Shown: positions 4,237 through 37,260 of the stretch, piece after piece | How positions within the stretch are numbered: position 1 is the first letter of the stretch | How the letters are laid out: every line of letters begins with the position of its first letter | NCBI RefSeq assembly: GCF_003574395.1 | Contig: NZ_QMJY01000073.1 | Span: 1 to 54,708, forward strand | Source of the DNA: Tabrizicola thermarum | Lineage (GTDB): Bacteria > Pseudomonadota > Alphaproteobacteria > Rhodobacterales > Rhodobacteraceae | DNA: 54,708 nt | Direction: 5' to 3' | Program-made: the position numbers and the translations under genes | The notes under the pieces: generated by a model | Database searches by the model: none | Told to the model about the DNA's origin: nothing | What the model saw: the letters and a program-made list of their open reading frames with translations, nothing else

Positions 4237-4280
4237 CAAAATCCTTCGAAGGATTTTGCAAATCTTTTCGAAAAGATTTG
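4237..4280. repeat. Paired 22-bp TTCGAA palindromes, copy 1 (orphan position)
   Basis: Two perfect 22-bp palindromes abut with no spacer: 4237-4258 (left arm CAAAATCCTTC) and 4259-4280 (left arm CAAATCTTTTC), both centred on TTCGAA. Unlike the other copies, this pair does not follow a stop codon; it lies between the divergent starts of carB and pabB. Confidence 0.9.
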
Positions 4281-4391
4281 CCGCGCGCCGCAGGGACCGG
4301 GGGTCGCAAAGTCGGCTGGTTGCGTCGGGAAAGCCACTGGCGCGAGGCGCGCGATCGGCCTATCCCGGACACCGGAAGACGGGGGGCGCGG

Positions 4392-5528
4392 GTGATCCTA
4401 CTTGAACACGGGCCAGGCGGGACACCGGCGTTGTTCGATGCGCCGCGCGAGGTCATTGCCGCGATGCGCCCGGCCGAGGTTGCGCCCGCGCTGGCCCGGG
4501 CCGAGGCGCTGCGGCGGGCAGGAGCCTGGCTTGCGGGCTATGTCGCCTATGAGGCGGGCTATGCCTTCGAGCCGCGCCTGCGGCACCTGATGCCCCGCAG
4601 GCGGCCCGGCCCCCTGGTCGCCCTCGGGGTCCATGACGCCCCCCGACCGGCCGAGGCGGCCTTGGCCGAAGCCGCCGCTGCGGGGGCCGGAACGCGGATG
4701 ACGGCGCCGGAGCCGCTGGTCGGTCGCCGGGCCTATGGCACTGCGGCGCGCAAGGTGTTCGACTATATCGCGGCAGGCGACTGCTATCAGGTCAACCTGA
4801 CCTTTCCGATGCGGGCGCGGCTGGTTTCGGGCTCTGCGCTGGGGTTGTACGGCGCGTTCCGCCGCACCGGGGCGGTGGGGCATGGCGCCTATGTCGATCT
4901 GGGGGTGGGGCCGGTTGTGGTGTCACGCTCGCCCGAGCTGTTCTTCCGGGTCGAGGGCGGGAAGATCGTCACCCGCCCGATGAAGGGCACGCGGCCAAGG
5001 GGCAGGGACGCGACCGAGGATGCGGCGATTGTCGCCGAGTTGCAGGGGGCCGAAAAGGACCGGGCCGAGAACCTGATGATCGTGGACCTTCTGCGCAACG
5101 ACATCTCGCGGCTGTCGCGGGTGGGGACGGTGAAGGTGCCGGCGCTGTTTGCGATCGAGAGCTATTCCACGGTGCATCAGATGACCTCGACGGTCGAGGG
5201 CGTGCTGGACGGCGCGCCGAGCCTGCCTGGGCTGATGGCGGCGCTGTTTCCCTGCGGATCGGTGACGGGGGCGCCGAAGATCCGCGCGATGGAGATCATC
5301 CGCGAGGTGGAGCCTCTTGCGCGCGGCGTCTATTGCGGCGCGGTGGGGTGGATGTCGCCCGAGGGGGATGCCGATTTCAGTGTGGCGATCCGGACGCTGT
5401 CGGTTTCCGGGCAGGACATCGTCATGAACGTGGGCGGCGGGCTGACGCATGGGTCCACCGTCGAGGGCGAATGGGAGGAGGCGCTGTGGAAGGCGCGCTT
5501 CGTGAAGGCGGCGGTGAGCCGGGACTGA
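4392..5528 (+). CDS. pabB: Aminodeoxychorismate synthase component I
   Basis: PabB converts chorismate plus ammonia to 4-amino-4-deoxychorismate for p-aminobenzoate and folate. GTG 4392 was chosen because the family N-terminus starts there and a G-rich stretch precedes it; the longer frame begins at a TTG inside the palindrome repeat. The 378 residues carry the chorismate-enzyme signatures [16 protein letters not shown], the block [19 protein letters not shown] and GSVTGAPK, whose lysine is typical of PabB. The short N-terminal part is reduced compared with enterobacterial PabB (about 450 residues). The gene overlaps pabC by 43 nt, so the two are translationally linked. PabA is not in the window. 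Confidence 0.92.
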
Positions 5529-6094
5529 GGCTGATCGAGACCGTGCTGTGGGATGGCCGGGCCGCCCCGCGCTGGCCGCTGCATCAGGCGCGGCTGCGGC
5601 GGTCGGCGGAGCTTCTGGGCTGGTCCTGTCCCGACCTGGTGCCTGCCGGGCCGGATCATCCGGCGCGTGTGCGGCTGACGCTGGACCGCAACGGCGCGGT
5701 GGACTGGACGGTTGCCCCGCTGCCCCCGGCCAGGGCCGAGTGGCGCGTTGGACTGGCGAAAGAGCGTCTCGCCTCGGGCGATCCCTGGCTGCGGGTCAAA
5801 TCGACGCGGCGCGAGGTTTACGACCGGGCGCGGGCGGCCTTGCCCGAAGGGTTGGACGAAGTCCTGTTCCTGAACGAACGCGGCGAGGTCTGCGAGGGGA
5901 CGATCACGACGGTGTTCTTCGACAGGGGGCAGGGGTTGCGGACACCCCCCCTGTCGAGCGGGGTGTTGCCGGGGGTCCTGCGGGCGGAGCTGGGGTGCCC
6001 GGAGGAGGTGCTTCTGGCCGCGGACCTGCCGAAGGTGCGTCTCTGGGTCGGGAACGCGTTGCGGGGACTGTTCCCAGCCGTCTGGGTTGGCTGA
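5486..6094 (+). CDS. pabC: Class IV aminotransferase, probable aminodeoxychorismate lyase
   Basis: This 202-residue protein has the fold-type IV PLP enzyme features: a lysine in [13 protein letters not shown] (the Schiff-base region) and the segment [17 protein letters not shown]. Overlap with pabB makes the lyase that releases pyruvate and p-aminobenzoate the likeliest role. GTG 5486 is preferred because GGGAGGAG (5473-5480) stands just upstream; ATG 5471 is in frame but would lie inside that site. It is shorter than enterobacterial PabC (about 270). Branched-chain or D-amino-acid transaminase activity cannot be excluded from sequence. Confidence 0.82.
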
Positions 6095-6099
6095 ACCCG

Positions 6100-6151
6100 C
6101 CGGGGGTTTCACACCCCCGGACCCCCGTGGAGTATTTCCGAAAAGAGCAAG
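6100..6151 (+). repeat. CCGGGGG-stem dispersed element, copy A
   Basis: Starting 5 nt after the pabC stop, CCGGGGG (6100-6106) and CCCCCGG (6114-6120) enclose the loop TTTCACA. The constant tail ACCCCCGTGGAGTATTT and then GAAAAGAGCAAG follow. The element lies about 90 nt before aspS. The loop differs from the CCAG of copies B and C while the stem is identical. Confidence 0.85.
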
Positions 6152-6240
6152 CACAGGCGGGTGCCGCGGGGTTGACTCGGGGGCCGGGGCAAGGTGTATC
6201 GGCGCGATGGAATTCAAGGCCCTCCGAAAGGGGAATGACG

Positions 6241-8037
6241 ATGCACGCCTATCGCAGCCATACCTGTGCCGCGCTGAACAAGGATCATGTGGGGCAGACG
6301 GTCCGCCTGTCGGGCTGGGTCCATCGGGTGCGGGACCATGGCGGGGTGCTGTTCATCGACCTGCGCGACCATTACGGGATCACCCAGATCCTGTGCGACG
6401 GCGACAGCCCGGCCTTTGCCGCGCTGGAGAAGGTGCGCGCCGAATGGGTGATCCGGGTCGATGGCCGGGTGAAGGCGCGGGATGCCGCACTGGTCAATCC
6501 GAAGATCCCCACGGGCGAGATCGAGGTTTACGCGACAGAGGTCGAGGTGCTGGGCGCGGCGGAGGAGCTGCCGCTGCCGGTCTTCGGTGACACCGAATAC
6601 CCCGAGGAGACGCGGCTGACCTACCGTTTCCTCGACCTGCGCCGCGAGACGATGCACCAGAACATGATGCTGCGTTCGAACGTGGTGCGCTGGCTGCGCA
6701 ACGCGATGTGGGATCAGGGGTTCACCGAGTTCCAGACGCCGATCATCACGGCGTCCAGCCCCGAAGGCGCGCGGGACTTCCTGGTGCCGTCGCGCCTGCA
6801 TCCGGGCAAGTTCTACGCCCTGCCGCAGGCGCCGCAGCAGTTCAAGCAGCTGATCCAGGTCGCGGGCTTCGACCGCTATTTCCAGATCGCCCCCTGTTTC
6901 CGCGACGAGGACCCGCGCGCGGACCGTTCCCCGACCGACTTCTACCAGCTGGACATCGAGATGTCCTTTGTCACGCAGGAGGACGTGTTCGCCGCCGTCC
7001 AGCCGGTGTTGCAGGGGCTGTTCGAAACCTTCGGCAAGGGGCGGAAGGTCCATGCCGACTGGCCGCGCATCGCCTACCGGGACGCGCTGAAATGGTATGG
7101 CAGCGACAAGCCCGACCTGCGCAACCCGATCAGGATGCAGGACGTGAGCGAGCATTTCCGCGGCTCGGGCTTCGCAATCTTCGCGAAGCTTCTGGAGCAG
7201 GAGGGCAACGAGGTCCGCGCCATTCCGGCGCCCAAGGGGCCGTCGGGCGAACCCGTTGGCCGCAAGTTCTGCGACCGTATGAATGCCTTCGCCCAACAGC
7301 AGGGGCTGCCGGGGATGGGCTACATCTTCTGGCGCGAGGCCGAGGACGGCTCGGGGATGGAGGCCGCGGGGCCCCTGGCCAAGAACATCGGGCCGGAGCG
7401 GACCGAGGCGATCCGGCTGCAACTGGGCCTGGAAAAGGGCGACGCCGCCTTCTTCCTGGGCGGCAGGCCGGAGGCCTTCGAGGGCATCGCCGGCAAGGCG
7501 CGGAACGTGATCGGCGAGGAACTGGGGCTGACCGAGAAGGACTGCTTCCGCTTTGCCTGGATCGTCGATTTCCCGATGTACGAAAGGACCGACGAGGGGA
7601 AGATCGACTTTTCCCACAACCCGTTCTCGATGCCGCAGGGGGGGCTTGAGGCGCTGAACGGCGACCCGCTGAAGGTGCTGGCCTATCAGTATGACCTTGC
7701 CTGCAACGGCTATGAGGTGATCTCGGGCGGCATCCGCAACCACAAGCCGGAGATCATGTACAAGGCCTTCGAACTGGCGGGCTATCCGGCGTCGGAGGTG
7801 GACAAGCGGTTCGGCGGCATGGTCAAGGCGTTCAAATACGGCGCGCCGCCGCACGGCGGTTGCGCGGCGGGGATCGACCGGCTGGTGATGCTTCTGGCCG
7901 ATACCCAGAACATCCGCGAGGTCATCATGTTCCCGATGAACCAGCGCGCCGAGGATCTTCTGATGGGCGCGCCCAGCGAGCCGACCTTGCAGCAGTTGCG
8001 CGAATTGCACCTGCGCGTGGTGCCGAAGGACAGCTGA
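6241..8037 (+). CDS. aspS: Aspartate-tRNA ligase, probably non-discriminating
   Basis: This bacterial-type class II synthetase (598 residues) charges tRNA with aspartate. It has the N-terminal OB-fold, motif 2 ([20 protein letters not shown]), an inserted GAD region and motif 3 (GIDRLVMLL). ATG 6241 is used because AAAGGGGA lies about 6 nt before it; ATG 6235 is also possible. The anticodon-binding stretch reads RDHGG with His33. In characterised enzymes, His at this position instead of Leu marks relaxed specificity towards tRNA-Asn, which would imply Asn-tRNA formation by GatCAB. That last point is inference from the family rule. The next gene starts at the stop codon (TGATG). Confidence 0.96.
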
Positions 8038-8504
8038 TGTATCAGGCCTCCGTCCCCGTCTTCCGCCACTACCTGTCGCGCGTCAGCGACATCGTGGCGG
8101 TCGCGGGGCCGGATGCGCTGGACGCCCGGATCGCCGATGCCTTCCCCGCCCGCCAGCAGTTCGCCACGGCTGCCGGCTTTGCCTTGCGTATCGCCTGCCC
8201 GCTGGCCGGGCGCGAGGTGCCGGACCTGCCACAGGGCCTCGGGCCGCGCCTGGCGGTGGCTCGCGCGCTTCTGGGGTCGATGACGCCCGCCGATTTCGAA
8301 GGGGCGGAGACACGGGTGATCCGCCACCGCGCGGGCTTTGCCGATCTGGAGCAGAGCGGCAGCGAGTTCCTCTATCTCTTCGGCCTGCCGAATTTCTTCT
8401 TTCACCTGACGATGGGATACGCTGCCCTGCGCGCTGCCGGGGTGCCGCTGGGCAAGGCGGACTTCGACGGCTTGCATGCCTATCCGGCCGATTTCCGGTT
8501 CTGA
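8037..8504 (+). CDS. DUF1993 family protein
   Basis: The 155-residue protein begins [20 protein letters not shown], the typical DUF1993 opening, and has the Phe/Tyr-rich LYLFGLPNFFFHLTMGYAAL segment near the C-terminus followed by a short Gly-containing tail. DUF1993 proteins are predicted four-helix bundles related to the DinB/DUF664 group; no activity is established. The ATG shares a base with the aspS stop (TGATG), so it is probably co-translated with aspS. No signal peptide or clear membrane segment is seen. Confidence 0.82.
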   Translation: MYQASVPVFRHYLSRVSDIVAVAGPDALDARIADAFPARQQFATAAGFALRIACPLAGREVPDLPQGLGPRLAVARALLGSMTPADFEGAETRVIRHRAGFADLEQSGSEFLYLFGLPNFFFHLTMGYAALRAAGVPLGKADFDGLHAYPADFRF

Positions 8505-8565
8505 CGGACGCCTTGCGCCCGCAGGACCGGGGGCCTAGCCTGACATCAGGGCTGGGGAGGTCAGG

Positions 8566-9282
8566 ATGGCGGAGGCAAGGCTGGGAGAGGTGGTTGCCGA
8601 CTGGACCCCGCCACCGCGCCCGGACCGCGCGGCGATGACGGGGCGCTTCGTCCGGCTGGAGCCGCTGGAGGCCGACCGGCATGCCTTTGAATTGCACGAC
8701 GCCTTTCAGGGGCACGACGCGCTTTGGGACTACATGCCCTATGGCCCCTTCGCCTCGGGCTCGGCCTATCACCGCTGGGCGCGCGAACGCGAGGGCGGCG
8801 AGGACCCCCGGTTCTTCATGATGCGCGACCTGGGCAGCGGGACATGCGGCGGCATCGCCAGCTACCTGCGCATCGCGCCCGAAGTCGGGTCGATCGAGGT
8901 CGGGCATATCTGCATCTCACCGTCGATGCAGCGCGGGGCGGCGGCGACCGAGGCGATGTTCCTGATGATGGACTGGGCCTTTCGCGCGGGTTATCGGCGC
9001 TATGAGTGGAAATGCAATGCGCTGAACCTCGCCTCGCGCCGGGCGGCGCAGCGGCTGGGGTTCAGTTTCGAGGGCGTCTTCCGCAACCATCTGATCGTCA
9101 AGGGGCGCAACCGGGACACGGCCTGGTTTTCCGTCATCGACAGCGAATGGCCGGCCCTGGCCGAGGCTTACGCCCTGTGGCTGTCGCCGGCGAATTTCGA
9201 CGCCCTGGGCCGGCAGCGCGAACGCCTGTCGGACCTGACCCGGCTGGTGCGGGCCGGGAGCGACCCTGCGCTGGAAGGCTGA
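8566..9282 (+). CDS. GNAT-family N-acetyltransferase (RimJ/RimL type)
   Basis: The 238 residues fit the RimJ/RimL group of GNAT acetyltransferases: RFVRLEPLEADRHAFELHDA at the N-terminus, then beta-4/alpha-3 around VGHICISPSMQRGAAATEAM (acetyl-CoA binding) and NLASRRAAQRLGFSFEGVFR near the C-terminus. GAGGTCAGG precedes the ATG. The substrate may be a protein N-terminus or a small amine and cannot be told. A short stem, GCGCC/GGCGC, at 9286-9298 lies between this gene and the convergent response regulator. Confidence 0.85.
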   Translation: MAEARLGEVVADWTPPPRPDRAAMTGRFVRLEPLEADRHAFELHDAFQGHDALWDYMPYGPFASGSAYHRWAREREGGEDPRFFMMRDLGSGTCGGIASYLRIAPEVGSIEVGHICISPSMQRGAAATEAMFLMMDWAFRAGYRRYEWKCNALNLASRRAAQRLGFSFEGVFRNHLIVKGRNRDTAWFSVIDSEWPALAEAYALWLSPANFDALGRQRERLSDLTRLVRAGSDPALEG

Positions 9283-9306
9283 GCTGCGCCCCGGGCGCGG
9301 CGCGGC

Positions 9307-9984
9307 TCAGGCCATGGAGCGCAGGGCGGCGATCCGATCCTCGATCATGCGGGACAGGAGCGCCCGGTCGAACGGAGTGCGGCTGCTGCGCGCGGCCTCT
9401 TCCAGCGCGCGGTCGCCCGAGGCGCGGGCCAGGCTTTGCAGGAAGGCCCGCGCATAGCTCGGGTCGCCCGGAGCGGCAATCAGGGTCGCGGCGCGGGCCA
9501 GATCGTCGCGCAGCGCCATCGGATCGCCGAAGGGGGTGGGCGTGTCCTCTCCCTTGTCGATCGGGCCGACGCCGGTGGTCAGCTGCCGAATCAGCCGCAC
9601 GAATCCGGCCACCGATGCGATCGGCTTGTCCAGAAACCCCGCCGCCCCGGCATCCAGCGCCGCATCGCGCCCGTTCGGATCGCCCGAAAGGCCGAGGACC
9701 GGGAAGCCTTGCGCCGACAGTTCGGCAATCAGGTCCTCCCCCCGTCCGTCGGGCAGGCCGAGATCGACGATGGCCAGATCGGGGCGGTAGCAGTTCAGGT
9801 GAAGTCGTGCGATTTCAAGGCTTTCCGCCCGACGCAGCCGCGCCCCCGCCCGCTGGAGGATCAGCCGCAGCGCATCGCAGGTGAAGCGGCTGTCATCGAC
9901 GATCATCAGCGTCAGCCCCTGCAGGGGCAGATCGCCTGCCCCCGGCGGAATATCGGGCAGGCTGGGATAGGCGCTATAGGGCAT
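9307..9984 (-). CDS. Response regulator, receiver domain with helical C-terminus
   Basis: Residues about 23-140 form a CheY-like receiver: acidic pair Asp30-Asp31 (MIVDDSRFT), phospho-acceptor Asp74 (IVDLGLPDG) and conserved Lys120 (FLDKPIAS). The remaining roughly 85 residues look helical (ARAFLQSLARASGDRALEEA) and match no DNA-binding output domain I recognise, so this may act through protein contacts, as in phosphorelays or stress regulation. No histidine kinase is adjacent. A CtrA-like site lies upstream at 10027-10041. The gene is convergent with the acetyltransferase. Confidence 0.85.
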   Translation of the reverse strand: MPYSAYPSLPDIPPGAGDLPLQGLTLMIVDDSRFTCDALRLILQRAGARLRRAESLEIARLHLNCYRPDLAIVDLGLPDGRGEDLIAELSAQGFPVLGLSGDPNGRDAALDAGAAGFLDKPIASVAGFVRLIRQLTTGVGPIDKGEDTPTPFGDPMALRDDLARAATLIAAPGDPSYARAFLQSLARASGDRALEEAARSSRTPFDRALLSRMIEDRIAALRSMA

Positions 9985-10026
9985 GACGGACCTCTTTCGT
10001 GACGCGCAGAGTGTCGTCCCGGCCCG

Positions 10027-10041
10027 TTAACCGGCGGTAAA
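10027..10041. promoter_or_regulatory. CtrA-like box
   Basis: The sequence reads TTAA, seven bases (CCGGCGG), then TAAA, one mismatch from the alphaproteobacterial CtrA site TTAA-N7-TTAA. It lies 43 nt upstream of the response-regulator start and 81 nt upstream of mce. A site of this size can occur by chance. Confidence 0.25.
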
Positions 10042-10121
10042 TGGAACTGCGACCATCGCGCCGCTTGCAGCCCGAAGGCCCGGGTCGCATAACCGCGGGG
10101 CAGACGCCATGCGAGGAGCCC

Positions 10122-10526
10122 ATGATCGGACGCCTGAACCATGTTGCCATCGCCGTGCCCGACCTCGAGGCCGCCGCCGCGCAGTATCGCGTGACGCTGG
10201 GGGCCAAGGTGGGCGCGCCTCAGGCCGAGCCGGACCATGGCGTGACGGTGGTCTTCATCGACCTGCCGAACACCAAGATCGAGCTTCTGCATCCGCTGGG
10301 CGAGGCATCCCCCATCGCGGGGTTCCTGGAGAAGAACCCCTCGGGCGGCATCCACCACATCTGTTACGAGGTCGACGATATTCTTGCGGCGCGGGATCAC
10401 CTGAAGGCTCAGGGCGCGCGGGTGCTGGGATCGGGCGAGCCGAAGATCGGCGCGCATGGCAAGCCGGTGCTGTTCCTGCATCCCAAGGATTTCAACGGCT
10501 GTCTGGTGGAGCTGGAACAGGCATGA
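10122..10526 (+). CDS. mce: Methylmalonyl-CoA epimerase
   Basis: This VOC-fold metalloenzyme (134 residues) interconverts the (R) and (S) forms of methylmalonyl-CoA in propionyl-CoA or ethylmalonyl-CoA metabolism. Two glyoxalase-like repeats are visible: MIGRLNHVAIAVPDLEAAAA with the first His ligand, then the segment ending IELLHPLG, GGIHHICYEVDD with the third ligand, and a terminal CLVELEQ. Length and motifs match bacterial Mce. ATG 10122 follows a GAGGAG site; longer in-frame starts lack family sequence. The stop overlaps the next start (ATGA). Confidence 0.93.
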   Translation: MIGRLNHVAIAVPDLEAAAAQYRVTLGAKVGAPQAEPDHGVTVVFIDLPNTKIELLHPLGEASPIAGFLEKNPSGGIHHICYEVDDILAARDHLKAQGARVLGSGEPKIGAHGKPVLFLHPKDFNGCLVELEQA

Positions 10527-10792
10527 GCATCACGGGCGCCATCGTCCTTTACGCCGTCACCTGGTTCATGACGCTGTTCTGCGTGCTGCCCTACCGCACC
10601 CAGTCGCAGGACGAGGCCAACCACATCGTGCCCGGAACGCCTCCCGGGGCGCCGGCGGGAGAGGTGATGCAGCGCAAGGCCTGGGTGACGACGCTGATCG
10701 CAACGCCGATCTGGGCGGTGATCTGCGGGATCATCCTGTCGGGCTGGATCACGGTCGAGGACCTGGACTGGTTCGGCCGGATGAAGCCGTAA
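10523..10792 (+). CDS. DUF1467 family small membrane protein
   Basis: This 89-residue protein has two predicted membrane helices (about residues 4-24 and 57-77) flanking a polar loop, PYRTQSQDEANHIVPGTPPG. That pattern is the DUF1467 family, common next to mce in Rhodobacterales. Function is unknown. The ATGA overlap with mce means coupled translation. A palindrome pair begins 14 nt after the stop and probably terminates the operon. Confidence 0.85.
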   Translation: MSITGAIVLYAVTWFMTLFCVLPYRTQSQDEANHIVPGTPPGAPAGEVMQRKAWVTTLIATPIWAVICGIILSGWITVEDLDWFGRMKP

Positions 10793-10806
10793 GGGCGCGG
10801 CTGGGG

Positions 10807-10850
10807 CAAAATCCTTCGAAGGATTTTGCAAGACTTTTCGAAAAGTCTTG
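10807..10850. repeat. Paired 22-bp TTCGAA palindromes, copy 2
   Basis: The two abutting perfect palindromes are 10807-10828 (left arm CAAAATCCTTC, identical to copy 1) and 10829-10850 (left arm CAAGACTTTTC). The pair lies between the convergent ends of the DUF1467 gene and the EI24 gene, 14 and 9 nt from the stops, so a bidirectional terminator role is plausible. Confidence 0.9.
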
Positions 10851-10859
10851 CGCCCGGTC

Positions 10860-11555
10860 CTAGCGGCCCGCGCTGGCCAGCCGGTGGTAGAGATGGGTGA
10901 AGGTCGCTACGCCCAGCACCGGGATCACGAGGTTCAGAAGCGGGATGGACAGGGGCGCGGCCATCAGCGTTCCGGCGGCCCAGAGCGTCCAGCGGTTGCG
11001 GCGGCGCATGGCCTTGACCTCTCCCGGCGGCAGTCGGCGCAGCGCGACGAGGCTGAAATATTCGCGCCCGAGGAGGAAGCCGTTGATCGCCCAGAAGACC
11101 AGCGGGATGCCCGGTCCGACGAAGGGATAAAGCAACAGCGCGCCGACGTTCACCGCGAGGACGAGGCCCAGGAAGTTGACCGACTGGCGCAGGCCCTCGG
11201 CCAGCGTAAGCGGCGTGGCGGGGGGCAGGCCGGGGTAGTGCCGGTCCTCGACCGCGTCGGCCACATCTTCCAGGAAGAACCCGGTGAAAGCCGAGGCGAC
11301 GGGGATCATCAGGAAGACTGAGAGCCCCAGCATCAGGAACAGCGAAGCCCAGCCGAGGAAGGTCTCGATCCCCGAGATGGGGCCGATCACCGGCAGGTCG
11401 ACTGTATCGGGTGACAGCCACCAGATCAGTTGCAGGAACAGGATGTAGGCGGCGAACAGCAGCGCCAGGGCCAGCAGCACCCCCAGACCCACCACGCGGC
11501 GGAAGCGGCGGTCGCCCAGCTGGCCGAGGGCGGCGAAGAAGGCGGTGAAGATCAC
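10860..11555 (-). CDS. EI24-domain (CysZ-like) integral membrane protein
   Basis: The 231 residues have at least four strongly hydrophobic segments (about 22-45, 66-90, 131-165 and 192-220). The pattern around GLSVFLMIPVASAFTGFFLE and INGFLLGREYFSLVALR is characteristic of EI24/CysZ-like proteins. Enterobacterial CysZ supports sulfate uptake, but nothing here links this protein to sulfur, so the role stays open. It follows the nitroreductase with a 4-nt ATGA overlap, so the pair is one transcription unit ending at the palindrome pair. Confidence 0.82.
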   Translation of the reverse strand: MIFTAFFAALGQLGDRRFRRVVGLGVLLALALLFAAYILFLQLIWWLSPDTVDLPVIGPISGIETFLGWASLFLMLGLSVFLMIPVASAFTGFFLEDVADAVEDRHYPGLPPATPLTLAEGLRQSVNFLGLVLAVNVGALLLYPFVGPGIPLVFWAINGFLLGREYFSLVALRRLPPGEVKAMRRRNRWTLWAAGTLMAAPLSIPLLNLVIPVLGVATFTHLYHRLASAGR

Positions 11556-12130
11556 GCCTCGACCCAGGTCACGATGCGGGCGAGATCGGGGCGGGGGCGG
11601 TCGGGGCCGTCCTCGGGCGGGGTGGCGATGTGGACGATCCCGGCCACCGTTTCCTCAGCAGAGCAGCCGAAGGCGCGGGCGGCGAAGGTGGCGTCATGCG
11701 CGGGCCAGCCGGTCAGCCAGCAGGCGCCCCAGCCTGCGGCCTCGGCGGCGTTCACGATGCCGAAGCAGAGCGCCGCCGCCGAGGCCTGCTGCTCGGCCAG
11801 CGGGATCTTGGGCGAGGGTCTGGGCGAGGCGATCACCACCACGGCGAGCTTGCCCAGATCGTACTGCCCGCGCCCCTTGGCGATCATCTCGGCGTCGCCG
11901 CCCAGTTCCCGCGCCCGCGCCTCGGCCAGATCGGCCAGCCGGGCGAAGGCCGCGCCCTGCACCACGATCAGCCGCCAGGGCTCCAGCTTGCCGTGATCCG
12001 GCACGCGGGTTGCGGCGGTAAGGATTTCCTCCAGTTCCGGCCGGGTGGGGACGGGAAAGGTGAAGAGCTTGGCCGGGCGCGAGCGGCGGGCTTTCAGGAA
12101 GGCGAGGGCGGCATCGTTGCGGGCGGGCAT
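11552..12130 (-). CDS. Nitroreductase-family flavoprotein (YdjA-like)
   Basis: This short nitroreductase (192 residues) carries the FMN-binding pattern RRSRPAKLF near residues 15-23, the segment AATRVPDHGKLEPWRLIVVQ and the C-terminal EAAGWGACWLTGWPAHD. Compact members of this size resemble E. coli YdjA, an NAD(P)H-dependent oxidoreductase of unclear substrate. It is co-translated with the downstream EI24 gene (ATGA). Confidence 0.85.
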   Translation of the reverse strand: MPARNDAALAFLKARRSRPAKLFTFPVPTRPELEEILTAATRVPDHGKLEPWRLIVVQGAAFARLADLAEARARELGGDAEMIAKGRGQYDLGKLAVVVIASPRPSPKIPLAEQQASAAALCFGIVNAAEAAGWGACWLTGWPAHDATFAARAFGCSAEETVAGIVHIATPPEDGPDRPRPDLARIVTWVEA

Positions 12131-12222
12131 GGGGGTCCTTCGGGTCGTGGTCGGTGGGCAGTCTAGGGCCGCTGCCGGTCAACCGCCAGAGCGGGCGCCA
12201 GTGCGAGCAGGCGGGCCGGGTG

Positions 12223-12267
12223 CCGGAGTTCTCGAAACCTCCGGACCGATTTCTTCGAAGAAATCGG
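12223..12267. repeat. Paired 22-nt palindromes, divergent copy 5
   Basis: A perfect 22-bp palindrome centred on TTCGAA (12246-12267, left arm CCGATTTCTTC) stands 5 nt past the HDAC-like stop. Next to it, separated by one base, is a 22-nt imperfect hairpin (12223-12244; CCGGAG/CTCCGG stem with CTCGAA inside). Arms differ from the other copies but size, pairing and orientation are the same. It is a probable terminator for the minus-strand gene. Confidence 0.75.
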
Positions 12268-12272
12268 GGCGA

Positions 12273-13376
12273 TCACAGGCCGAGGCCCTGTGCCATCTCC
12301 TCGATCCAGCCGGCCGCGAAGGCGTCGAACCGGGCGTCGGGCTGGCGGCGGGCAAGCGTCGCGGCCAGAGGGTCGGGGGCCGAGACCGGGGCGGCGGACA
12401 GCTCCTCCAGCACGGCATGGCCGCAGAAGGGGACATAGACCTCGGAATAGCCGCCTTCATGGACCAGCGTCAGGCGGCCGTCGCACAAGGCATCGGCGGC
12501 CTGCATCATCTGGCGGGTCATCGCGCGGAAGGTTTCGGCGGTGCAGAGCATCCTGCCCAGGGGATCGACGGCGGCGGCGTCGAAGCCGCAGGCGACGATG
12601 ATCGCCTCGGGGCGGAAACGGTTGAGTGCGGGCAGGACCACCCTTTCCATCGCGTGCAGATAGGTCGCATGGCCGCAGCCGGGGGGTAGCGGCAGGTTGA
12701 TGTTCGATCCCGGAGCCTCCGGCCCGCCCGTCGCCTCGACCCCGCCGGTGTCCAGCGGATAGTTGCGGTCCTGATGCAGGCTGATCGTCAGCACATCGGG
12801 ATCGTTCCAGAAGATCGCCTCGGTCCCGTTGCCGTGGTGCACGTCCCAGTCCACCACCGCCACGCGGCGCAGCAGACCCTCGGCCCGGGCGGCGCGGATC
12901 GCCACGGCGATGTTGTTCAAGAGGCAGAAGCCGTTCGGGAAATCGGCGGTGCAATGGTGCCCCGGCGGGCGCGACAGTGCGTAGGCGTTGCGGACCGCAC
13001 CCGTCAGCACCGCCCGCAGGGCCGCCTTGGCCAGACCGGCGGACAGCGCCGCGATCTCGTAGCCGCCCGCGCCGAAGGGGGTGCGCAGGCCCAACTCGCC
13101 CCCGCCCGCGTCCGAGGCGGATTTGAAGGCGGCAAGGTAGCTGTCGGGGTGAACGCGCAGGAGGTCCTCGCGGCTGGCGGGCTCGGCGCCCCGCATCGAG
13201 AGGTGACGGGTCAGTCCCGTCACCTCGATCAGGTTGCGCAGGCGCCGCTTGGTTTCCGGGTTTTCGGGCAGCCCCCCCGACGTGGGTTGCACAAGACCAG
13301 CCACCGGCAGGGTGAAGGCGTAATTGCCGCCGCCGTGCCAGAAACACAGTTCGTCGGAAAAGAAGGCGGTGGTCAT
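12273..13376 (-). CDS. Class II histone-deacetylase-like amidohydrolase
   Basis: This zinc-dependent deacetylase homologue (367 residues) shows all core motifs: RPPGHH (His140-His141), DWDVHHGNGTE (Asp176, Asp178, His180), GFDAAAVDP (Asp266) and HEGGYSE near the C-terminus. Bacterial relatives deacetylate acetylpolyamines or other small amides, and some act on proteins; the substrate is not shown by context. It is a single-gene unit, with a palindrome pair just after its stop and the divergent MoxR operon upstream. Confidence 0.9.
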   Translation of the reverse strand: MTTAFFSDELCFWHGGGNYAFTLPVAGLVQPTSGGLPENPETKRRLRNLIEVTGLTRHLSMRGAEPASREDLLRVHPDSYLAAFKSASDAGGGELGLRTPFGAGGYEIAALSAGLAKAALRAVLTGAVRNAYALSRPPGHHCTADFPNGFCLLNNIAVAIRAARAEGLLRRVAVVDWDVHHGNGTEAIFWNDPDVLTISLHQDRNYPLDTGGVEATGGPEAPGSNINLPLPPGCGHATYLHAMERVVLPALNRFRPEAIIVACGFDAAAVDPLGRMLCTAETFRAMTRQMMQAADALCDGRLTLVHEGGYSEVYVPFCGHAVLEELSAAPVSAPDPLAATLARRQPDARFDAFAAGWIEEMAQGLGL

Positions 13377-13555
13377 GGCGGGTCTCCGTTTCGGGGAAGC
13401 CTACTCAGCCGGTGCAGGATTGGCCAGCGGCGGGCGACAGTGCCGGGCCGGGCGCGCCTCTCACGATCATTTGTGTCAAGTCGCCTTTTGCCATTTGTGC
13501 CCGGCGGGATAGTTCGCTTTACTGACAGGGACAGACCCCGAAGGGAGCATGAGGC

Positions 13556-14556
<1,001 letters not shown>

Positions 14557-14560
<4 letters not shown>

Positions 14561-15429
14561 CCATAGCCCCCGACCTGCGGTCCCGCGCCGAGGCGCTGGG
14601 GCAGACCCTGCCGCCCTTGCTGGCCGAGGCCGAGATGCTGGCCTCGACGGTGATGATGGGCGAGCATGGCCGCCGCCGGGCGGGGCTGGGGGATGAGTTC
14701 TGGCAGTACCGGCCCGCGCATCAGGGCGATTCGGCGCGGATGATCGACTGGCGGCGGTCGGCCCGGTCGGATGCGCATTTCGTGCGCGAACGGGAATGGC
14801 AGGCGGCGCAATCGGTGACGATCTGGGTCGATCCGGCGAAGTCGATGAGCTTCTCCGGCGACAGGTCCCGCGCGCCGAAGGCGGACCGGGCGAGGCTTCT
14901 GGGGCTGGCGCTGGCGGTCCTGCTGCTGCGCGGCGGGGAACGGGTGGGGCTGGCGGGCCTGGCCTCCCCTCGCGCGGGGCGGGCGCAGCTTCTGCGGCTG
15001 GCGGCGCGGTTGGCCGACGACGCGGCGGATCAGGATTACGGCGCGCCGGAAACCGAAGGCATGGTCAGCCATGGCCGGGCGGTGTTCCTGTCGGATTTCC
15101 TGGGCGATCTTGGCGGCATCGAGGCGGGGCTCGCGCGGGCCGCCGACCGGGGGGTGAAGGGCGTGCTGATCCAGGTGTTGGACCCGGCCGAGGAGGAGTT
15201 TCCCTTCGACGGCCGCACGATCTTTGAATCCATGGGCGGCACGATGCGGCATGAAACCCAGCAGGCGGGCGAGTTGCGCGCGCGCTATCTGGCGCGGCTG
15301 GCCGAGCGCAAGGACCGGCTGGCGCAGTTGGCCCGCGCGGTGGGCTGGCATTTCACCACGCATCACACCGGGTCCCCGGCGCAATCGGCGCTGCTCTGGG
15401 CCTATCTCGCGCTGGAGGGCGGGCGCTAG
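14557..15429 (+). CDS. DUF58 domain protein (von Willebrand-like partner of MoxR)
   Basis: The 290 residues show the DUF58 signature GDEFWQYRPAHQGDSARMIDW followed by a von Willebrand-like fold in which VTIWVDPAKSMSF replaces a full DxSxS metal site with DPAKS. No signal peptide or membrane helix is obvious, so it is likely cytosolic, working with MoxR. GTG 14557 is the start because it overlaps the moxR stop (GTGA). The next gene begins directly after its TAG. Confidence 0.9.
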
Positions 15430-20279: not shown

Positions 20280-20295
20280 GGCTTCTGCCGTCGGA

Positions 20296-20343
20296 CCGGG
20301 GGCCAGCCCCCGGACCCCCGGAGTATTTCACGAAAAGAGCAAG
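20296..20343 (+). repeat. CCGGGGG-stem dispersed element, copy B
   Basis: CCGGGGG (20296-20302), loop CCAG and CCCCCGG (20307-20313) are followed by ACCCCCGGAGTATTT and CGAAAAGAGCAAG. It starts 16 nt after the last MoxR-operon stop, in the same strand orientation relative to that gene as copies A and C. Confidence 0.85.
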
Positions 20344-22666: not shown

Positions 22667-22672
22667 CGCACC

Positions 22673-22719
22673 CCGGGGGCCAGCCCCCGGACCCCCGGAG
22701 TATTTTGGAAAAGAGCAAG
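22673..22719 (+). repeat. CCGGGGG-stem dispersed element, copy C (inside glc operon)
   Basis: CCGGGGG (22673-22679), loop CCAG and CCCCCGG (22684-22690) are followed by ACCCCCGGAGTATTTT and GGAAAAGAGCAAG. It fills nearly all of the 55-nt gap between glcD and glcE. Its purine-rich tail ends 2 nt before the glcE ATG and is the only candidate ribosome-binding region there. Confidence 0.85.
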
Positions 22720-26993: not shown

Positions 26994-26996
26994 ACA

Positions 26997-27467: not shown

Positions 27468-27487
27468 GTCCCGTCCAGCCGGACCAG

Positions 27488-28789: not shown

Positions 28790-28798
28790 GGGCTGCCT

Positions 28799-29161: not shown

Positions 29162-29294
29162 CGGGAACCTCCCATTCGGCTTCACGGGCCGGAAGCCATG
29201 GCGGGCGGCCATCAGGGCCACTTGCAGGGAATGACGCAGCCGGGACAGGTTTCATCCCGCCCCGGCTGCCGGATCACGCGCATGTGATCGAAAC

Positions 29295-29337
29295 CGTCGC
29301 TCATCCCCGCGACGAGAAGGCGAAGCCGCACGAGGAG
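29295..29337 (-). repeat. Two-hairpin post-stop element, copy 1
   Basis: The plus-strand sequence holds CGTCGC/GCGACG (29295-29300 with 29309-29314) and GGC-GAA-GCC (29319-29327). It ends 3 nt before the complement of the VWA stop codon, i.e. right after the stop in transcript sense. The 27-nt core 29311-29337 matches 50594-50620 at 24 positions. Confidence 0.65.
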
Positions 29338-29340
29338 CCG

Positions 29341-31892: not shown

Positions 31893-31974
31893 CACGTTAG
31901 CTGTGACGCGCGCGGCCCCGCAATCCTTGGTCCCGCCCGGAACAGGCCGCGCCCGGAAATCCTTACCCCGGACG

Positions 31975-32011
31975 AAAAGACCCCCGGCGCGAGGATCGCT
32001 CGCGCCGGGGG
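31975..32011 (-). terminator. Rho-independent terminator of the peptidoglycan-binding gene
   Basis: A perfect 13-bp GC-rich stem (31981-31993 with 31999-32011; arm CCCCCGGCGCGAG, loop GATCG) is followed on the minus strand by TCTTTT. It lies 44 nt past the minus-strand stop. Confidence 0.85.
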
Positions 32012-32054
32012 CTGGATCAGAGGTCGGACCCCGGGTTACGATGGCCGGATCGGA

Positions 32055-32561: not shown

Positions 32562-32711
32562 GAGCATTTCCTTTCGTGACGGGCCCGAGGCAGCCGGGCC
32601 GATGCCATGGGTTATGGGGACCCGGGCCACGCTAGGCAAAATCAGGCCGGCGTTAGGGGGAAACAGCCCGCTGTTATCGGATAACGCCTGTGATTTCAGA
32701 CGGTTGCCTGC

Positions 32712-33830
32712 TCAGCCGATGGTGCGCAGCGCAGCCGACAACCGCTCTAAACCTTCGTTGATCCGCGCTTCCGGCCCGCCGCCCGCCCCGATGCGGATGT
32801 GATGCGGCAGGCCATAGGCCGATCCGGGCAACAGGAACGTCCGGTAGGGCGGCTTCAGCAGCGCCCGGGCCAGCGATTCGCCGTCGATCCCCGCGACCCG
32901 AGCCAGGCCGATCAGCCCCGCCTCGGGCCGGTGCCAGGACAGGCGCGGTTCTGCCGCGACAAAGCTGTCCAGGAGGTCCAGCGTCTCGGCCCCTTCGGCC
33001 CGCGCCTGCGCCAGCGCCGAGGCCAGCCTTTCGGGCCGCAGCGCGACTTCGGCGATATGCTCGCCCAGCGTGTTCATGATCTCGGACCCGTTCTCGCGCA
33101 GGATCATCGCGTCGCGGATGACCTCCGGCGACTGGCAGATCATCCAGCCGGTGCGCAGCCCCTGCAGCCCCAGGGCTTTCGATACCGACCCCGTGGTGAT
33201 CCCGAAGCGCGTCATCCCGGCGATGGCGGGGGGGCGAGGCCCCGCCCATTCGAGCCCCGCATAGACCTCGTCCACCACCAGCCAGATGCCGCGCCGTTCC
33301 GCCAGATCGGCCAGCGCGCGCAGGTCAGCTTCGGGGATCAGCCGCCCGGTCGGGTTGTTGGGGTTGGTCAGGAAGATCATCCGCGTCCGGGGCGTGACCG
33401 CGCGGGCCACCGCCTGTGGGTCCAGCCACCAGCCCCGTGCCTCGTCCCGCGGCACCTCGACCAGCCGCGCGCCGATGGCCCTGGCCATCACTCCGGCCTG
33501 GGGCCAGCCGGGGGCTTCGGTGATGATCTCGTCGCCTGCGGTCAGAAGCTGCCGGAACAGGAGATAGTTCGCCTCGGCCGCCCCCGCCGTGACAAGGACG
33601 CTGTCCACCGGCAGCGAAAGCCCCGCCTGATCCAGCACCCGCTGCCGCAAGCCCGGCAGGCCGAGGAAGCTCTTGCCGTTCCAGTCCAGCGAGAGGTCAG
33701 GGTCGAGGTCCGGCAGGAAGTCCTTCAGCCTTGGCGAGCGGGCCAGCGAGAATCCGATGAAACACTCCGGCGGGTCCTGGGCCGTCGTCTCCAGCAGGTA
33801 ATCGAACAGCTTGTGAATGGCGACCTTCAT
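32712..33830 (-). CDS. PLP-dependent class I/II aminotransferase
   Basis: The 372 residues have the fold-type I landmarks: LVTAGAAEANYLLFR, TNPNNPTGRL, the Asp-x-x-Tyr pair VVDEVYAGLEW and the Schiff-base lysine in TGSVSKALGLQGLRTGW, with a C-terminal Arg in HHIRIGAGG. An Ile-Glu-rich active-site sequence does not identify the substrate; relatives act on amino acids or as cysteine-lyase-like enzymes. ATG 33830 follows GAGGGGG; the slightly longer frame (33848) starts next to the palindrome repeat. Confidence 0.87.
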   Translation of the reverse strand: MKVAIHKLFDYLLETTAQDPPECFIGFSLARSPRLKDFLPDLDPDLSLDWNGKSFLGLPGLRQRVLDQAGLSLPVDSVLVTAGAAEANYLLFRQLLTAGDEIITEAPGWPQAGVMARAIGARLVEVPRDEARGWWLDPQAVARAVTPRTRMIFLTNPNNPTGRLIPEADLRALADLAERRGIWLVVDEVYAGLEWAGPRPPAIAGMTRFGITTGSVSKALGLQGLRTGWMICQSPEVIRDAMILRENGSEIMNTLGEHIAEVALRPERLASALAQARAEGAETLDLLDSFVAAEPRLSWHRPEAGLIGLARVAGIDGESLARALLKPPYRTFLLPGSAYGLPHHIRIGAGGGPEARINEGLERLSAALRTIG

Positions 33831-33845
33831 CCGCCCCCTCGCGCG

Positions 33846-33889
33846 CAAAAGTTTTCGAAAACTTTTGCAAAATCCTTCGAAGGATTTTG
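33846..33889. repeat. Paired 22-bp TTCGAA palindromes, copy 3
   Basis: The palindromes at 33846-33867 (left arm CAAAAGTTTTC) and 33868-33889 (left arm CAAAATCCTTC) abut exactly. The pair starts 5 nt beyond the minus-strand SDR stop, with the CCTTCGAAGG member nearest the stop, and separates the SDR-yghU operon from the aminotransferase. Confidence 0.9.
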
Positions 33890-33894
33890 TCCCC

Positions 33895-34623
33895 TCACCG
33901 CACGTCGCGCCCCTGGTTCAGGATGATGACGTTCCCCGAAGACACATCCCCTGCGGGCGAGATCAGGAACCCCACCCAGGCCGCGATCTCCTCCGGCTGC
34001 ATCGCCCGCCCATGCGGCATCGCCGAAATCGCCTTCGCCAGCACTTCCTCGGTCAGCACATTGAACAGGGGCGTCTCGGTCATCGCCGGCGCGATGGAGT
34101 TCACCGCGATCCTCTCTCTCGCATAGCGCCGCGCGAGGTCCTTGGTCAGCGTGTCCATCGCCGCCTTCGAGGCCCGGTAATGCGGCGGGTCGAAGACGTC
34201 GAAGTTGTAGGCGCCATTGGATGAGATGTTGACGATCTTGCGCACCCCCGGCCGGCCCGCCATCGCCTTCACCGCGCCCTGACAGCAATGGAAGGCCGAG
34301 GAGAAATTGATCGCCATCTGCCGGTCGAGTTCCGCCGCCGGAATGTCGGGGAAGTCCGACATGAAGCAGGTCCCGGCGTTGTTCACCAGCGCATCCACCC
34401 CGCCGAAGCGGGCGGTCAGCCGGTCGAACAGGTCGGCAATCGCTTCGGCGTCGGTCAGGTCCACCGCCTCGGCCACGAACCCCTCGCGGTCCGCCGCCAT
34501 CGCCACCAGCGCCGCGCCGTCGATGTCCACCCCCACCACCGTCAGACCATCGGCCAGGAGCCGGTCAACGAAGGCACGACCCAGGCCCCCGGCGGCACCG
34601 GTGACGACGGCAACCCGGCTCAT
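33895..34623 (-). CDS. Short-chain dehydrogenase/reductase
   Basis: This classical SDR (242 residues) has the cofactor motif TGAAGGLGRAF near the N-terminus, VDI at the end of beta-2 (suggesting NAD preference), NNAG, the active-site Ser in NISSNGAY and the Tyr-x-x-x-Lys in HYRASKAA. The substrate is not identifiable. The start at 34623 overlaps the yghU stop (ATGA), so the SDR is second in a two-gene operon with a glutathione-dependent enzyme. Confidence 0.9.
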   Translation of the reverse strand: MSRVAVVTGAAGGLGRAFVDRLLADGLTVVGVDIDGAALVAMAADREGFVAEAVDLTDAEAIADLFDRLTARFGGVDALVNNAGTCFMSDFPDIPAAELDRQMAINFSSAFHCCQGAVKAMAGRPGVRKIVNISSNGAYNFDVFDPPHYRASKAAMDTLTKDLARRYARERIAVNSIAPAMTETPLFNVLTEEVLAKAISAMPHGRAMQPEEIAAWVGFLISPAGDVSSGNVIILNQGRDVR

Positions 34624-35468: not shown

Positions 35469-35566
35469 GCGGCATACCCTTCGATTGCGGATCGAGGGAA
35501 AGCTAGTGCGTCAGGCCCGCCTGCACCAGAGGCCCGAAACGGCGGGACCGCCCTGCCGAAATGCAC

Positions 35567-35592
35567 AAGAGGCGGCCCGAAGACCGCCCCTT
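35567..35592 (-). terminator. Candidate terminator of gabD
   Basis: A 9-bp stem with one G-U pair (AAGAGGCGG at 35567-35575, CCGCCCCTT at 35584-35592) lies 18 nt past the gabD stop in transcript direction. The T-tract is poor. Confidence 0.45.
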
Positions 35593-35610
35593 GCCCGGAT
35601 GTCCGCCCCG

Positions 35611-37089
35611 TCAGATCGACAGGCAGACGTATTTCAGCTCCATGTAGTCGTCGATGCCGTGGCGGCTGCCTTCGCGCCCCAGACCCGACTGCTTGACCCC
35701 GCCGAAGGGCGCCATCTCGTTGGAGATGAGGCCGGTGTTCACCCCCACCATCCCGTATTCCAGCGCCTCCTGCACCCGAGTGATGCGGCCGATGTCGCGG
35801 GCATAGAAATAGGAGGCGAGGCCGAAGATGGTGTTGTTCGCCATCGCGATCGCCTCTTCCTCGGTCTCGAACCGGAACAGCGGCGCGAGCGGCCCGAAGG
35901 TTTCTTCCTGCGCCACCTTCATGTCGGGCTTCACGCCGGTGACGACCGTCGGCTCGAAGAAAGTGCCGCCCAGCTCGTGCCGCTTGCCCCCCGTCACGAC
36001 CTTGCCGCCGCCGGCCAGCACGTCCTGGATATGCTCCTCGACCTTCTCGACCGCCGCTTCGTTGATCAGCGGGCCGGTCGTGACGCCGGGCTTCAACCCG
36101 TCGCCGATGGCCAGCTTCTCGACCGCCGCCGCCAGTTTGGCGGCAAAGGCGTCATAGACCCCGGCCTGGACATAGATCCGGTTGGCGCAGACGCAGGTCT
36201 GGCCGTTGTTGCGGAACTTCGAGATCATCGCGCCTTCCACCGCCGCGTCCAGATCGGCGTCGTCGAAGACGATGAAGGGCGCGTTGCCGCCCAGCTCCAT
36301 GCTGCACTTCAGCACCTGGTCGGCGGCCTGACGCAGCAGGATCCGGCCCACTTCGGTGGACCCGGTGAAGGTCAGCTTTCGGATCAGCGGGTTCTCGCAG
36401 AACTCCTTGCCGATGTCCGAGGACCGTTTCGAGGTGATGACCGAGAACAGCCCCTTCGGCACCCCGGCGCGTTCCGCCAGCACCGCCAGCGCCAGCGCCG
36501 ACAGAGGGGTCTCCGCCGCCGGACGCGCGACGAAACCGCAGCCCGCCGCAAGCGCCGGGGCCACCTTGCGCGCGATCATCGCGTTGGGGAAGTTCCACGG
36601 CGTGATCGAGGCGGCCACGCCGATCGGCTGTTTCAGCACCTGGATGCGCTTGTCGCGCTGATGGCCGGGGATGATCTCGCCATAGGTGCGCTTGGCTTCC
36701 TCGCCGTAGAACTCGATGTAGCTGGCGCCATAGGCGATCTCGCCCTTGGCCTCGGCCAGGGGCTTGCCCATTTCGGCGGTCAGGATCGTCGCCAGGTCAT
36801 CCTGGTTCGCCATGCACAGGTCGAACCAGCGGCGCAGCACCTGGGCGCGCTCTTTCGCGGTCCGCCCCGCCCATTCGCGGTGTGCGGTGTGCGCAGCCTT
36901 GATCGCGCGGGCGGTTTCGGCCCGGCCGAGGTTGGGGAGTTCGCAGATCACATCGCCCCGCGCGGGGTTGGTCACGGGGAAGGTTGTGCCATCGTCCGCC
37001 ATGACCCATTCGCCGGCGACGTAGGATTTCGTCACCAGAAGCGAGGGGTCTTTCAGAAGCGACGCGAGGTCGGTCACGGAATCGAGCAT
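35611..37089 (-). CDS. gabD: Succinate-semialdehyde dehydrogenase (NADP-type)
   Basis: GabD oxidises succinate semialdehyde to succinate in GABA degradation. The 492 residues contain the catalytic set Asn166 (PWNFPNAM), Glu265 (SMELGGNAP) and Cys299 (GQTCVCANR), and the family C-terminus [13 protein letters not shown]. The usual NADP-binding Lys in the K-P-A/S motif is Arg189 here ([10 protein letters not shown]), a mild substitution that may alter cofactor binding. ATG 37089 follows AGGAGGG. No GABA transaminase is adjacent. It is a single-gene unit, downstream of palindrome copy 4. Confidence 0.92.
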
Positions 37090-37216
37090 GGGTGGGCCCT
37101 CCTTATGCTGGTGTGACAGGTGCCACGCAGGGCGCGTTCTGTCCAGTTGCAAGGCTGCGTTCAGGCCAAGGTTTGATCAAATCCCCGGCAAGCTGGACCT
37201 GTTCCAGCGGGCAGCG

Positions 37217-37260
37217 CAAATCTTTTCGAAAAGATTTGCAAATTCCTTCGAAGGAATTTG
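37217..37260. repeat. Paired 22-bp TTCGAA palindromes, copy 4
   Basis: The palindromes at 37217-37238 (left arm CAAATCTTTTC) and 37239-37260 (left arm CAAATTCCTTC) abut exactly. The pair begins 22 nt past the stop of the coiled-coil gene on the minus strand. The CCTTCGAAGG member has a T/A exchange in both arms compared with copies 1-3, keeping the palindrome intact. Confidence 0.9.

What the first reader, a model, noticed from the sequence alone, without database searches (positions are those of the whole stretch)
4237..37260. Family of paired, abutting 22-bp palindromes centred on TTCGAA
Four loci (4237-4280, 10807-10850, 33846-33889, 37217-37260) hold two perfect 22-bp palindromes with no spacer. 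One member has CCTTCGAAGG at the centre, the other TTTTCGAAAA. Arms differ between copies, yet both sides change together (CAAATC/GATTTG, CAAGAC/GTCTTG, CAAAAG/CTTTTG), so structure is kept. In three of four, the CCTTCGAAGG member is nearest the upstream stop codon. A fifth, divergent pair is at 12223-12267. The fixed size, pairing and orientation are more than an ordinary terminator needs; they might be terminators, mRNA 3' stabilisers or protein sites.
Basis: seen in the sequence. Interest (0 to 1): 0.75.

Follow-up and report, generated by a model that had tools for sequence, protein, structure and literature searches.

The report
Paired-hairpin repeats at bacterial gene ends
The paired palindromes are real members of a repeated family of two (sometimes three) back-to-back hairpins that mostly sit just after stop codons in some Rhodobacteraceae; the hairpin shape, not the palindrome, is what evolution keeps, most likely to finish or protect the ends of messenger RNAs.

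Summary
Observation confirmed: four abutting pairs of perfect 22-bp palindromes and a fifth, divergent pair. Nine palindromes of 22 bp or more are present; 0.06 are expected. The genome has 27 strict pairs and 47 looser TTCGAA pairs, with 0 in reversed-pattern controls. Of 50 listed palindromes, 46 have a perfect abutting partner.

The palindrome is incidental. In 45 distinct copies chosen only by their cores, 11 of 18 stem pairs change on both sides. At window site 3 all 7 orthologs examined keep abutting hairpins, 3 of them with non-palindromic loops in both. In a sister subfamily, 48 hairpins have 17 different loops.

Placement: of 79 usable sites, 28 are convergent, 48 codirectional, 3 divergent. 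A U-tract rarely follows (2 of 176 on either side). RAYT transposase is absent from the 4 genus genomes tested. Rfam has no match in the window.

Best reading: an untagged REP/BIME-like hairpin heterodimer acting as a bidirectional mRNA 3'-end element (exonuclease block, or U-less terminator). The function is inferred, not shown. The proposed orientation rule is weak (30 vs 18, p=0.11). Novelty: new variant of a known kind.

The parts
4237..4258 (.). Pair 1, CC-type hairpin (stem CAAAATCCT, loop TCGA)
   Evidence: perfect 22-bp palindrome; lies between divergent carB and a chorismate-binding gene, an exceptional position; identical in G191, absent at the matching place in G335
4259..4280 (.). 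Pair 1, TT-type hairpin (stem CAAATCTTT, loop TCGA)
   Evidence: perfect palindrome abutting the CC type
10807..10828 (.). Pair 2, CC-type hairpin, 14 nt after the stop of the + gene 10523-10792 (DUF1467)
10829..10850 (.). Pair 2, TT-type hairpin, 9 nt from the stop of the - gene 10860-11555 (CysZ/EI24 family); convergent site
   Evidence: no pair at the matching place in G335, which is an inversion breakpoint
33846..33867 (.). Pair 3, TT-type hairpin, 15 nt before the start of the - gene 32712-33830 (aminotransferase class I/II)
   Evidence: all 7 orthologous sites examined keep abutting hairpins
33868..33889 (.). Pair 3, CC-type hairpin, 5 nt after the stop of the - gene 33895-34623 (short-chain dehydrogenase)
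37217..37238 (.). Pair 4, TT-type hairpin, 127 nt before the start of the - gene 35611-37089 (aldehyde dehydrogenase)
   Evidence: replaced by another double hairpin in G191 and decayed in G440
37239..37260 (.). Pair 4, CC-type hairpin, 22 nt after the stop of the - ORF 37283-37612 (no Pfam match)
12223..12244 (.). Fifth pair (subfamily B): imperfect CCGGAG...CTCCGG hairpin
   Evidence: folds as a hairpin with 6 outer pairs
12246..12267 (.). Fifth pair (subfamily B): CCGATTTC-type hairpin, 5 nt from the stop of the - gene 12273-13376 (histone-deacetylase-like)

Best explanation
These are copies of a dispersed REP/BIME-like heterodimer: two (in subfamily B often three) abutting hairpins, each about 9 bp with a 4-nt loop, that act after transcription as a bidirectional mRNA 3'-end element. 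Shown: repetition, fixed tandem geometry, compensatory change of both stems, free loops in relatives, position just after stop codons, conservation above the flanks between sister genomes, and turnover between genomes. Inferred: the transcript of the upstream gene (or of both convergent genes) ends at or beyond the element. Rho or weak intrinsic termination releases the RNA and the hairpins stop 3'-to-5' exonucleases, fixing and protecting the 3' end. Two hairpins may leave one folded while a ribosome at the nearby stop codon disturbs the other. Direct U-less termination by the two hairpins is the nearest alternative.
For: 11 of 18 stem pairs with changes on both sides, 96.3% of 810 cells paired, covariation score 0.401 vs 0.118 for shuffles and at most 0.101 for slid partners. 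At pair 3, 7 of 7 orthologs keep abutting hairpins, 3 with non-palindromic loops in both hairpins. Subfamily B: inner stem pair Watson-Crick in 45 of 48 (26.9 expected), 17 loops. Sites: 28 convergent, 48 codirectional, 3 divergent vs 22, 127 and 59 neighbouring intergenic regions (p 2.8e-6 for the excess of convergent, 8e-7 for the lack of divergent). Within 30 nt of the stop in 23 and 27 of 28 (convergent, either side) and in 24 of 30 and 13 of 18 codirectional sites. Element 7 of 880 positions changed between G000 and G191 vs 42 of 681 in the intergenic flanks. A 10-copy orthologous junction spans loci titled Fuscovulum, Tabrizicola and Rhodobacter. In print: REP dimers lie within 20 bp of both stops at convergent sites (PMC3733652, passages); stable structures are proposed to stop PNPase in R. 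sphaeroides (PMC7866481, passages).
Against: No transcript data. Pair 1 and 2 other independent sites are divergent (2 of 48 in subfamily B). Copy number is patchy: the congener G394 has 3 TTCGAA pairs against 47, so the element is dispensable. Pair 4 is decayed in G440. Three of the four changed G191 orthologs have one-sided, stem-breaking changes. Folding of the A hairpins is modest, -5.5 to -8.3 kcal/mol. Sense-strand wobble is not clearly preferred (GU 10 vs AC 6 at codirectional sites, read), so single-strand RNA selection is not proven against ssDNA or two-strand selection. Gene conversion between copies could give some of the conservation.
Confidence: 0.55

Rival explanations
1. True intrinsic terminator of the 'V-shaped' kind: the two consecutive hairpins stop RNA polymerase themselves, in both directions, without a U-tract.
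For: Position right after stop codons and between convergent genes. Double adjacent hairpins downstream of stops, with or without U-tract, are reported as termination units (PMC8355165, passages). In pair 1 the TT arm puts CTTTT 6-10 nt after the CC hairpin, and a simple terminator scan flags it.
Against: A T-run follows in only 2 of 176 copies on either side. The scan of 1-20000 finds 9 terminator-like sites against 9.3 expected and does not list pair 2 or the fifth pair. Subfamily B stems end in CTCCGG or GAAATCGG, without a U-rich arm. Stems are weak for this job.
Confidence: 0.22
2. Selfish REP-like repeats that settle at gene ends because insertion there is harmless; no benefit to the host.
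For: Dispersed copies with patchy number: 54 and 48 in two genomes and 2 and 1 in two congeners. Absent at the matching places of pairs 1 and 2 in G335. Discrete arm types shared by many copies.
Against: No RAYT transposase (PF01797) in 4 of 4 genus genomes and in 1 of 11 tested in all. Copies change 0.8% against 6.2% in the flanks. One junction is kept across several named genera. Arms and loops at pair 3 are rewritten with the hairpins kept, which neutral decay would not do.
Confidence: 0.15
3. A DNA-level site: a palindrome bound by a dimeric protein (spacing of two helical turns), or a cruciform.
For: Perfect dyads with TTCGAA at the centre; centre spacing 22 or 23 bp in 140 of 143 copies. 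AT-rich arms in a 69% GC window.
Against: Loops are non-palindromic in orthologs and in subfamily B, and outer stem letters vary, so little fixed recognition sequence is left. Placement after stops is unexplained. A structure-specific cruciform role is not excluded.
Confidence: 0.07

Closest known systems
REP dimers / BIMEs, GTAG and CGTC superfamilies (PMC3733652, passages read)
   Same: Small hairpins, often in heterodimers, some with 1-2 bp between partners; uneven spread among species; within 20 bp of both 3' ends at convergent sites and near the upstream 3' end at codirectional ones; stems 8-9 bp and loops 4-5 for CGTC
   Different: No constant GTAG or CGTC tag; no RAYT in the genus genomes tested; partners abut (22-23 bp centre spacing in 140 of 143) instead of the usual 20-100 bp spacer; stem letters change freely with complementarity
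V-shaped (consecutive-hairpin) terminators without U-tract (PMC8355165, passages read)
   Same: Two hairpins without separation right after the stop codon, no U-tract
   Different: Here a repeated, homologous family rather than a shape class; termination not shown
Repeated stem-loop families near gene 3' ends: Bor, Ype, Efa (PMC1590033, passages read)
   Same: Repeats with hairpins near 3' ends, proposed to affect mRNA stability
   Different: Other taxa; an obligatory abutting pair is not mentioned in the passages read
Double-hairpin elements of mitochondrial DNA (search listing only; anatomy recalled)
   Same: Two consecutive hairpins, dispersed, apparently mobile
   Different: Organelle genomes; no relation tested

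Membership tests
REP/BIME (GTAG or CGTC superfamily) | 20-40 bp palindromic units in many copies, mostly intergenic | tested here: met
   73 palindromes matching one general 22-bp pattern in the genome; 79 usable sites placed between genes
REP/BIME (GTAG or CGTC superfamily) | GTAG or CGTC tetranucleotide at one end | tested here: not met
   In the 8 nt beside 176 copies: GTAG 4 vs 3.3 shuffled, CGTC 13 vs 11.3, GACG 9 vs 11.6; CTAC is in excess (9 vs 3.8, 7 of them on the right), but in few copies and possibly from TAG stop codons of the facing gene
REP/BIME (GTAG or CGTC superfamily) | Association with RAYT (Y1) transposase (some GTAG families) | tested here: not met
   PF01797: 0 of 4 genus genomes, 1 of 11 in all (G186); the hit in G186 was not followed
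REP/BIME (GTAG or CGTC superfamily) | 3'-end, convergent-biased placement | tested here: met
   28 convergent, 48 codirectional, 3 divergent
V-shaped intrinsic terminator | Two hairpins without separation downstream of a stop codon | tested here: met
V-shaped intrinsic terminator | Transcription ends there | not testable with these tools
   No RNA data held; needs Term-seq or in vitro transcription
Canonical (L-shaped) intrinsic terminator | GC-rich stem followed directly by a U-tract | tested here: not met
   T-run after 2 of 176 copies on either side
Any Rfam family | Match above the gathering score | tested here: not met
   0 matches in the window

The most novel reading that the evidence does not exclude
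A lineage-specific, domesticated double-hairpin 3'-end signal of Rhodobacteraceae: a U-less, bidirectional element recognised by structure alone, whose sequence can be swapped as a whole unit (A type, loop variants, three-hairpin B type) at one site while its job is kept, and which spreads without a RAYT transposase by a still unknown copying route.
Probability: 0.25. Interest if true: 0.65.

Novelty: new variant of a known kind. Interest (0 to 1): 0.45.

Why it matters
It offers a compact, testable 3'-end module in a GC-rich lineage, at sites that mostly lack a U-tract, with natural mutants at hand: stem swaps, loop swaps, empty sites, and congeners with 47 against 3 copies. If the function holds, it would show how a repeat family becomes a shared gene-end signal and would supply bidirectional parts for work in Rhodobacter.

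Tried and rejected
Outer stem joining the flanks into a three-way junction: flanks look complementary (GGGC before, CGCCC after), but pairing does not exceed permuted flanks in the 107 CAA-type copies (z 0.7 and 1.1); it does in the 36 others (z 2.3 and 3.4). Not adopted, not excluded for the others.

Fixed CC-first orientation: 30 vs 18, p 0.11; subfamily B 11 vs 10. Rejected as a rule.

RAYT-driven REP: no RAYT in 4 of 4 genus genomes. REP tags. Canonical terminator. A tRNA beside pair 1: no tRNA in the window. Strand-specific wobble test: inconclusive. The first codon model miscalled long antisense ORFs and was replaced.

Literature: core strings in full text: 56 papers, 30 listed. One listed title concerns terminators (PMC6723963); its passages show TTTTCGAAAA only beside ordinary terminators and in synthetic ones. 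The other 29 listed titles looked unrelated and were not opened; 26 were not listed. 'Rhodobacteraceae' with palindromic repeats, intergenic, hairpin: 15 of 390 listed, no description of this family seen. Searches (20 of 100; 4 of 4; 12 of 52; 6 of 6; 12 of 125; 2 of 2; 12 of 22) showed none in their listings. This is not proof of absence: only open-licence papers are held.

Limits: gene calls come from my own codon model; Pfam supports 9 of 10 neighbours tested. In one search, 141 elements gave 87 clusters, counted as 88 because locus L137 holds two elements under one name; 4 at locus edges and 5 far from genes were dropped. Hits of the covariance model include secondary matches on the other strand, so the numbers are not element counts. 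One shuffle per sequence was made.
Full report
The observation. From base composition about 0.06 palindromes of 22 bp or more are expected in the window; nine are present. A general scan for two abutting perfect hairpins (stems of 8 bp or more) finds 4 in the window, 6 junctions in 400 kb of the same genome, 3 in 327 kb of the congener G445 and 0 in 399.5 kb of the congener G394, with 0 in one dinucleotide shuffle of each.

Genome and family. The window lies in a 3.65-Mb genome whose relatives are Rhodobacteraceae: three of its junctions have homologous flanks on both sides in loci titled Rhodobacter calidifons (L015/L040, L017/L081, L025/L093). The strict pattern occurs 27 times and TTCGAA-13 to 19-TTCGAA 47 times, both with 0 in the reversed control. 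Of 73 palindromes matching a general 22-bp pattern, 50 were listed; 46 have a perfect partner 22 or 23 bp away, three of the other four have an imperfect TTCGAA partner and one is alone. The strict pattern is in 8 of 198 family genomes, the own one included. Copy number is patchy: 47, 46, 54, 48 and 42 TTCGAA pairs in five genomes, 23 and 3 in two congeners of the window genome, 2 and 1 in two congeners of the 54- and 48-copy genomes, and 0-8 in most of the 292 examined, where controls often give 0-3.

The hairpin, not the palindrome. In 143 copies selected by the cores alone, the palindrome runs 10 or more bases out from the centre in 131 (CC type) and 130 (TT type). In 45 distinct 44-mers so chosen, 96.3% of 810 stem cells pair and 11 of 18 pairs change on both sides; six of the other seven were fixed by the search pattern. 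The covariation score is 0.401 against 0.118 (sd 0.011) for shuffles and at most 0.101 for slid partners; the number of pairs with two-sided change is reached by 7 of 500 shuffles, the score by none. The orthologs of pair 3 are more telling. On the gene's sense strand G443 reads CAAATTCCTT-GAGT-AAGGAATTTG then CAAGAATTTT-ACTT-AAAATTCTTG; G442 has loops CAGT and ACTT, G445 GAGC and a TACTTG loop; G440 and G439 keep TTCGAA with other arms; G444 has three hairpins of subfamily B; G191 is unchanged in the pair (labels are shifted by one for L250-L252). So 7 of 7 keep abutting hairpins. At pair 4 six orthologs were aligned: four keep TTCGAA pairs, G191 has CCGGAAATC-GAAC-GATTTCCGG with a second small hairpin, and G440 is decayed.

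A pattern leaving six bases free inside the CGATTTC hairpin matches 18 times in the own genome, 32 in G191, 25 in G444, 10 in G335, 3 in G445, 0 in G394 and 0 in G186, G371 and G111. In the 48 copies held as loci the first and last free bases form a Watson-Crick pair in 45 (26.9 expected); there are 17 loops and 18 copies with a palindromic one.

Where they sit. With orthologs collapsed, 141 strict elements give 87 clusters (88 counted, one locus having two): 28 convergent, 30 codirectional with the CC member first, 18 with the TT member first, 3 divergent; 4 at locus edges and 5 far from called genes were set aside. Neighbouring intergenic regions of 50 bp or more in the same loci are 22 convergent, 127 codirectional and 59 divergent, so convergent sites are enriched (p 2.8e-6) and divergent ones depleted (p 8e-7). 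Median distance to the stop is 8 and 9 nt at convergent sites, 18 nt (CC first) and 10.5 nt (TT first) at codirectional ones. Subfamily B: 22 convergent, 21 codirectional, 2 divergent, 2 at edges, 1 inside a called gene, of 48. Pair 1 of the window, between carB and a chorismate-binding enzyme, is one of the exceptions.

Evolution. Of 27 strict pairs, 20 have an orthologous strict pair in G191, 16 of them identical. Differences are 7 of 880 element positions against 42 of 681 aligned positions (plus 9 gap columns) in the intergenic flanks (p 1e-9). Of the four changed copies, three carry one-sided changes that break a pair and one (L005/L177) swaps two stem pairs on both sides to another common type, which fits selection on pairing but also gene conversion. 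One junction is held in 10 loci, among them loci titled Fuscovulum blasticum, Tabrizicola aquatica and Rhodobacter sp.. Pairs 1 and 2 are absent at the matching places in G335, pair 2 at an inversion breakpoint, and no TTCGAA pair was found in the four G394 stretches that carry the flanking genes. G335 has a pair upstream of the deacetylase-like gene where the window has none, but the facing gene differs.

Mechanism. Hairpins directly after stop codons, on both strands, with compensating stems and free loops, point to a transcribed 3'-end structure. A downstream T-run is rare (2 of 176 on either side) and B stems have no U-rich arm, so canonical intrinsic termination is unlikely. Double adjacent hairpins are nevertheless reported as termination units, with or without a U-tract (PMC8355165, passages), and in R. 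sphaeroides stable structures are proposed to halt 3'-to-5' decay by PNPase (PMC7866481, passages). I therefore favour a bidirectional 3'-end block that fixes and protects mRNA ends, with U-less termination as the main rival. That one hairpin stays folded while a terminating ribosome disturbs the other is my inference. Against: the A hairpins are only modestly stable (-5.5 to -8.3 kcal/mol), the element is dispensable (G394), and wobble pairs are not clearly preferred on the sense strand.

Comparison. The closest known kind is the REP dimer/BIME: small hairpins, heterodimers, uneven distribution, within 20 bp of both stops at convergent sites (PMC3733652, passages). Its tags are not a constant feature here and RAYT is absent from the genus genomes tested, so I do not file it as a member; it is REP-like in anatomy and placement. 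Rfam has no match in the window. I found no description of this family in the searches named under Tried and rejected; those cover open-licence papers and mostly listings.

Noticed in passing
window about 6098-6150, 20289-20340 and 22666-22717 (GTATTT at 6132, 20323, 22700, + strand): A second repeated 3'-end element: a CCCCCGG hairpin followed by GGAGTATTTnnnnAAAAGAGCAAG, 33-43 nt after a same-strand stop in these three copies; 5 intergenic copies in 454,708 bases of the own genome, 0 in a shuffle, and many hits in G191, G335 and G394.
   Followed up: partly
window 6091-6165 and 10781-10861 against L231 (G335): The segment 6166-10780 is inverted in G335; one breakpoint lies at the second repeat, the other at pair 2.
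   Followed up: partly
window 45908-45927: A 20-bp perfect GC-rich palindrome ATGCGCCGCGCGCGGCGCAT at the end of the - gene 45927-46541, between convergent genes: a single hairpin where other sites have the pair.
   Followed up: no
L237 (G186): The only Y1 transposase (PF01797) hit among 11 genomes lies in G186, which also has 54 TTCGAA pairs; whether pairs flank it was not examined.
   Followed up: no
flanks of the A-type pairs: The bases outside the pair are biased to GGGC before and CGCCC after, without covariation between the sides in the CAA-type copies.
   Followed up: partly
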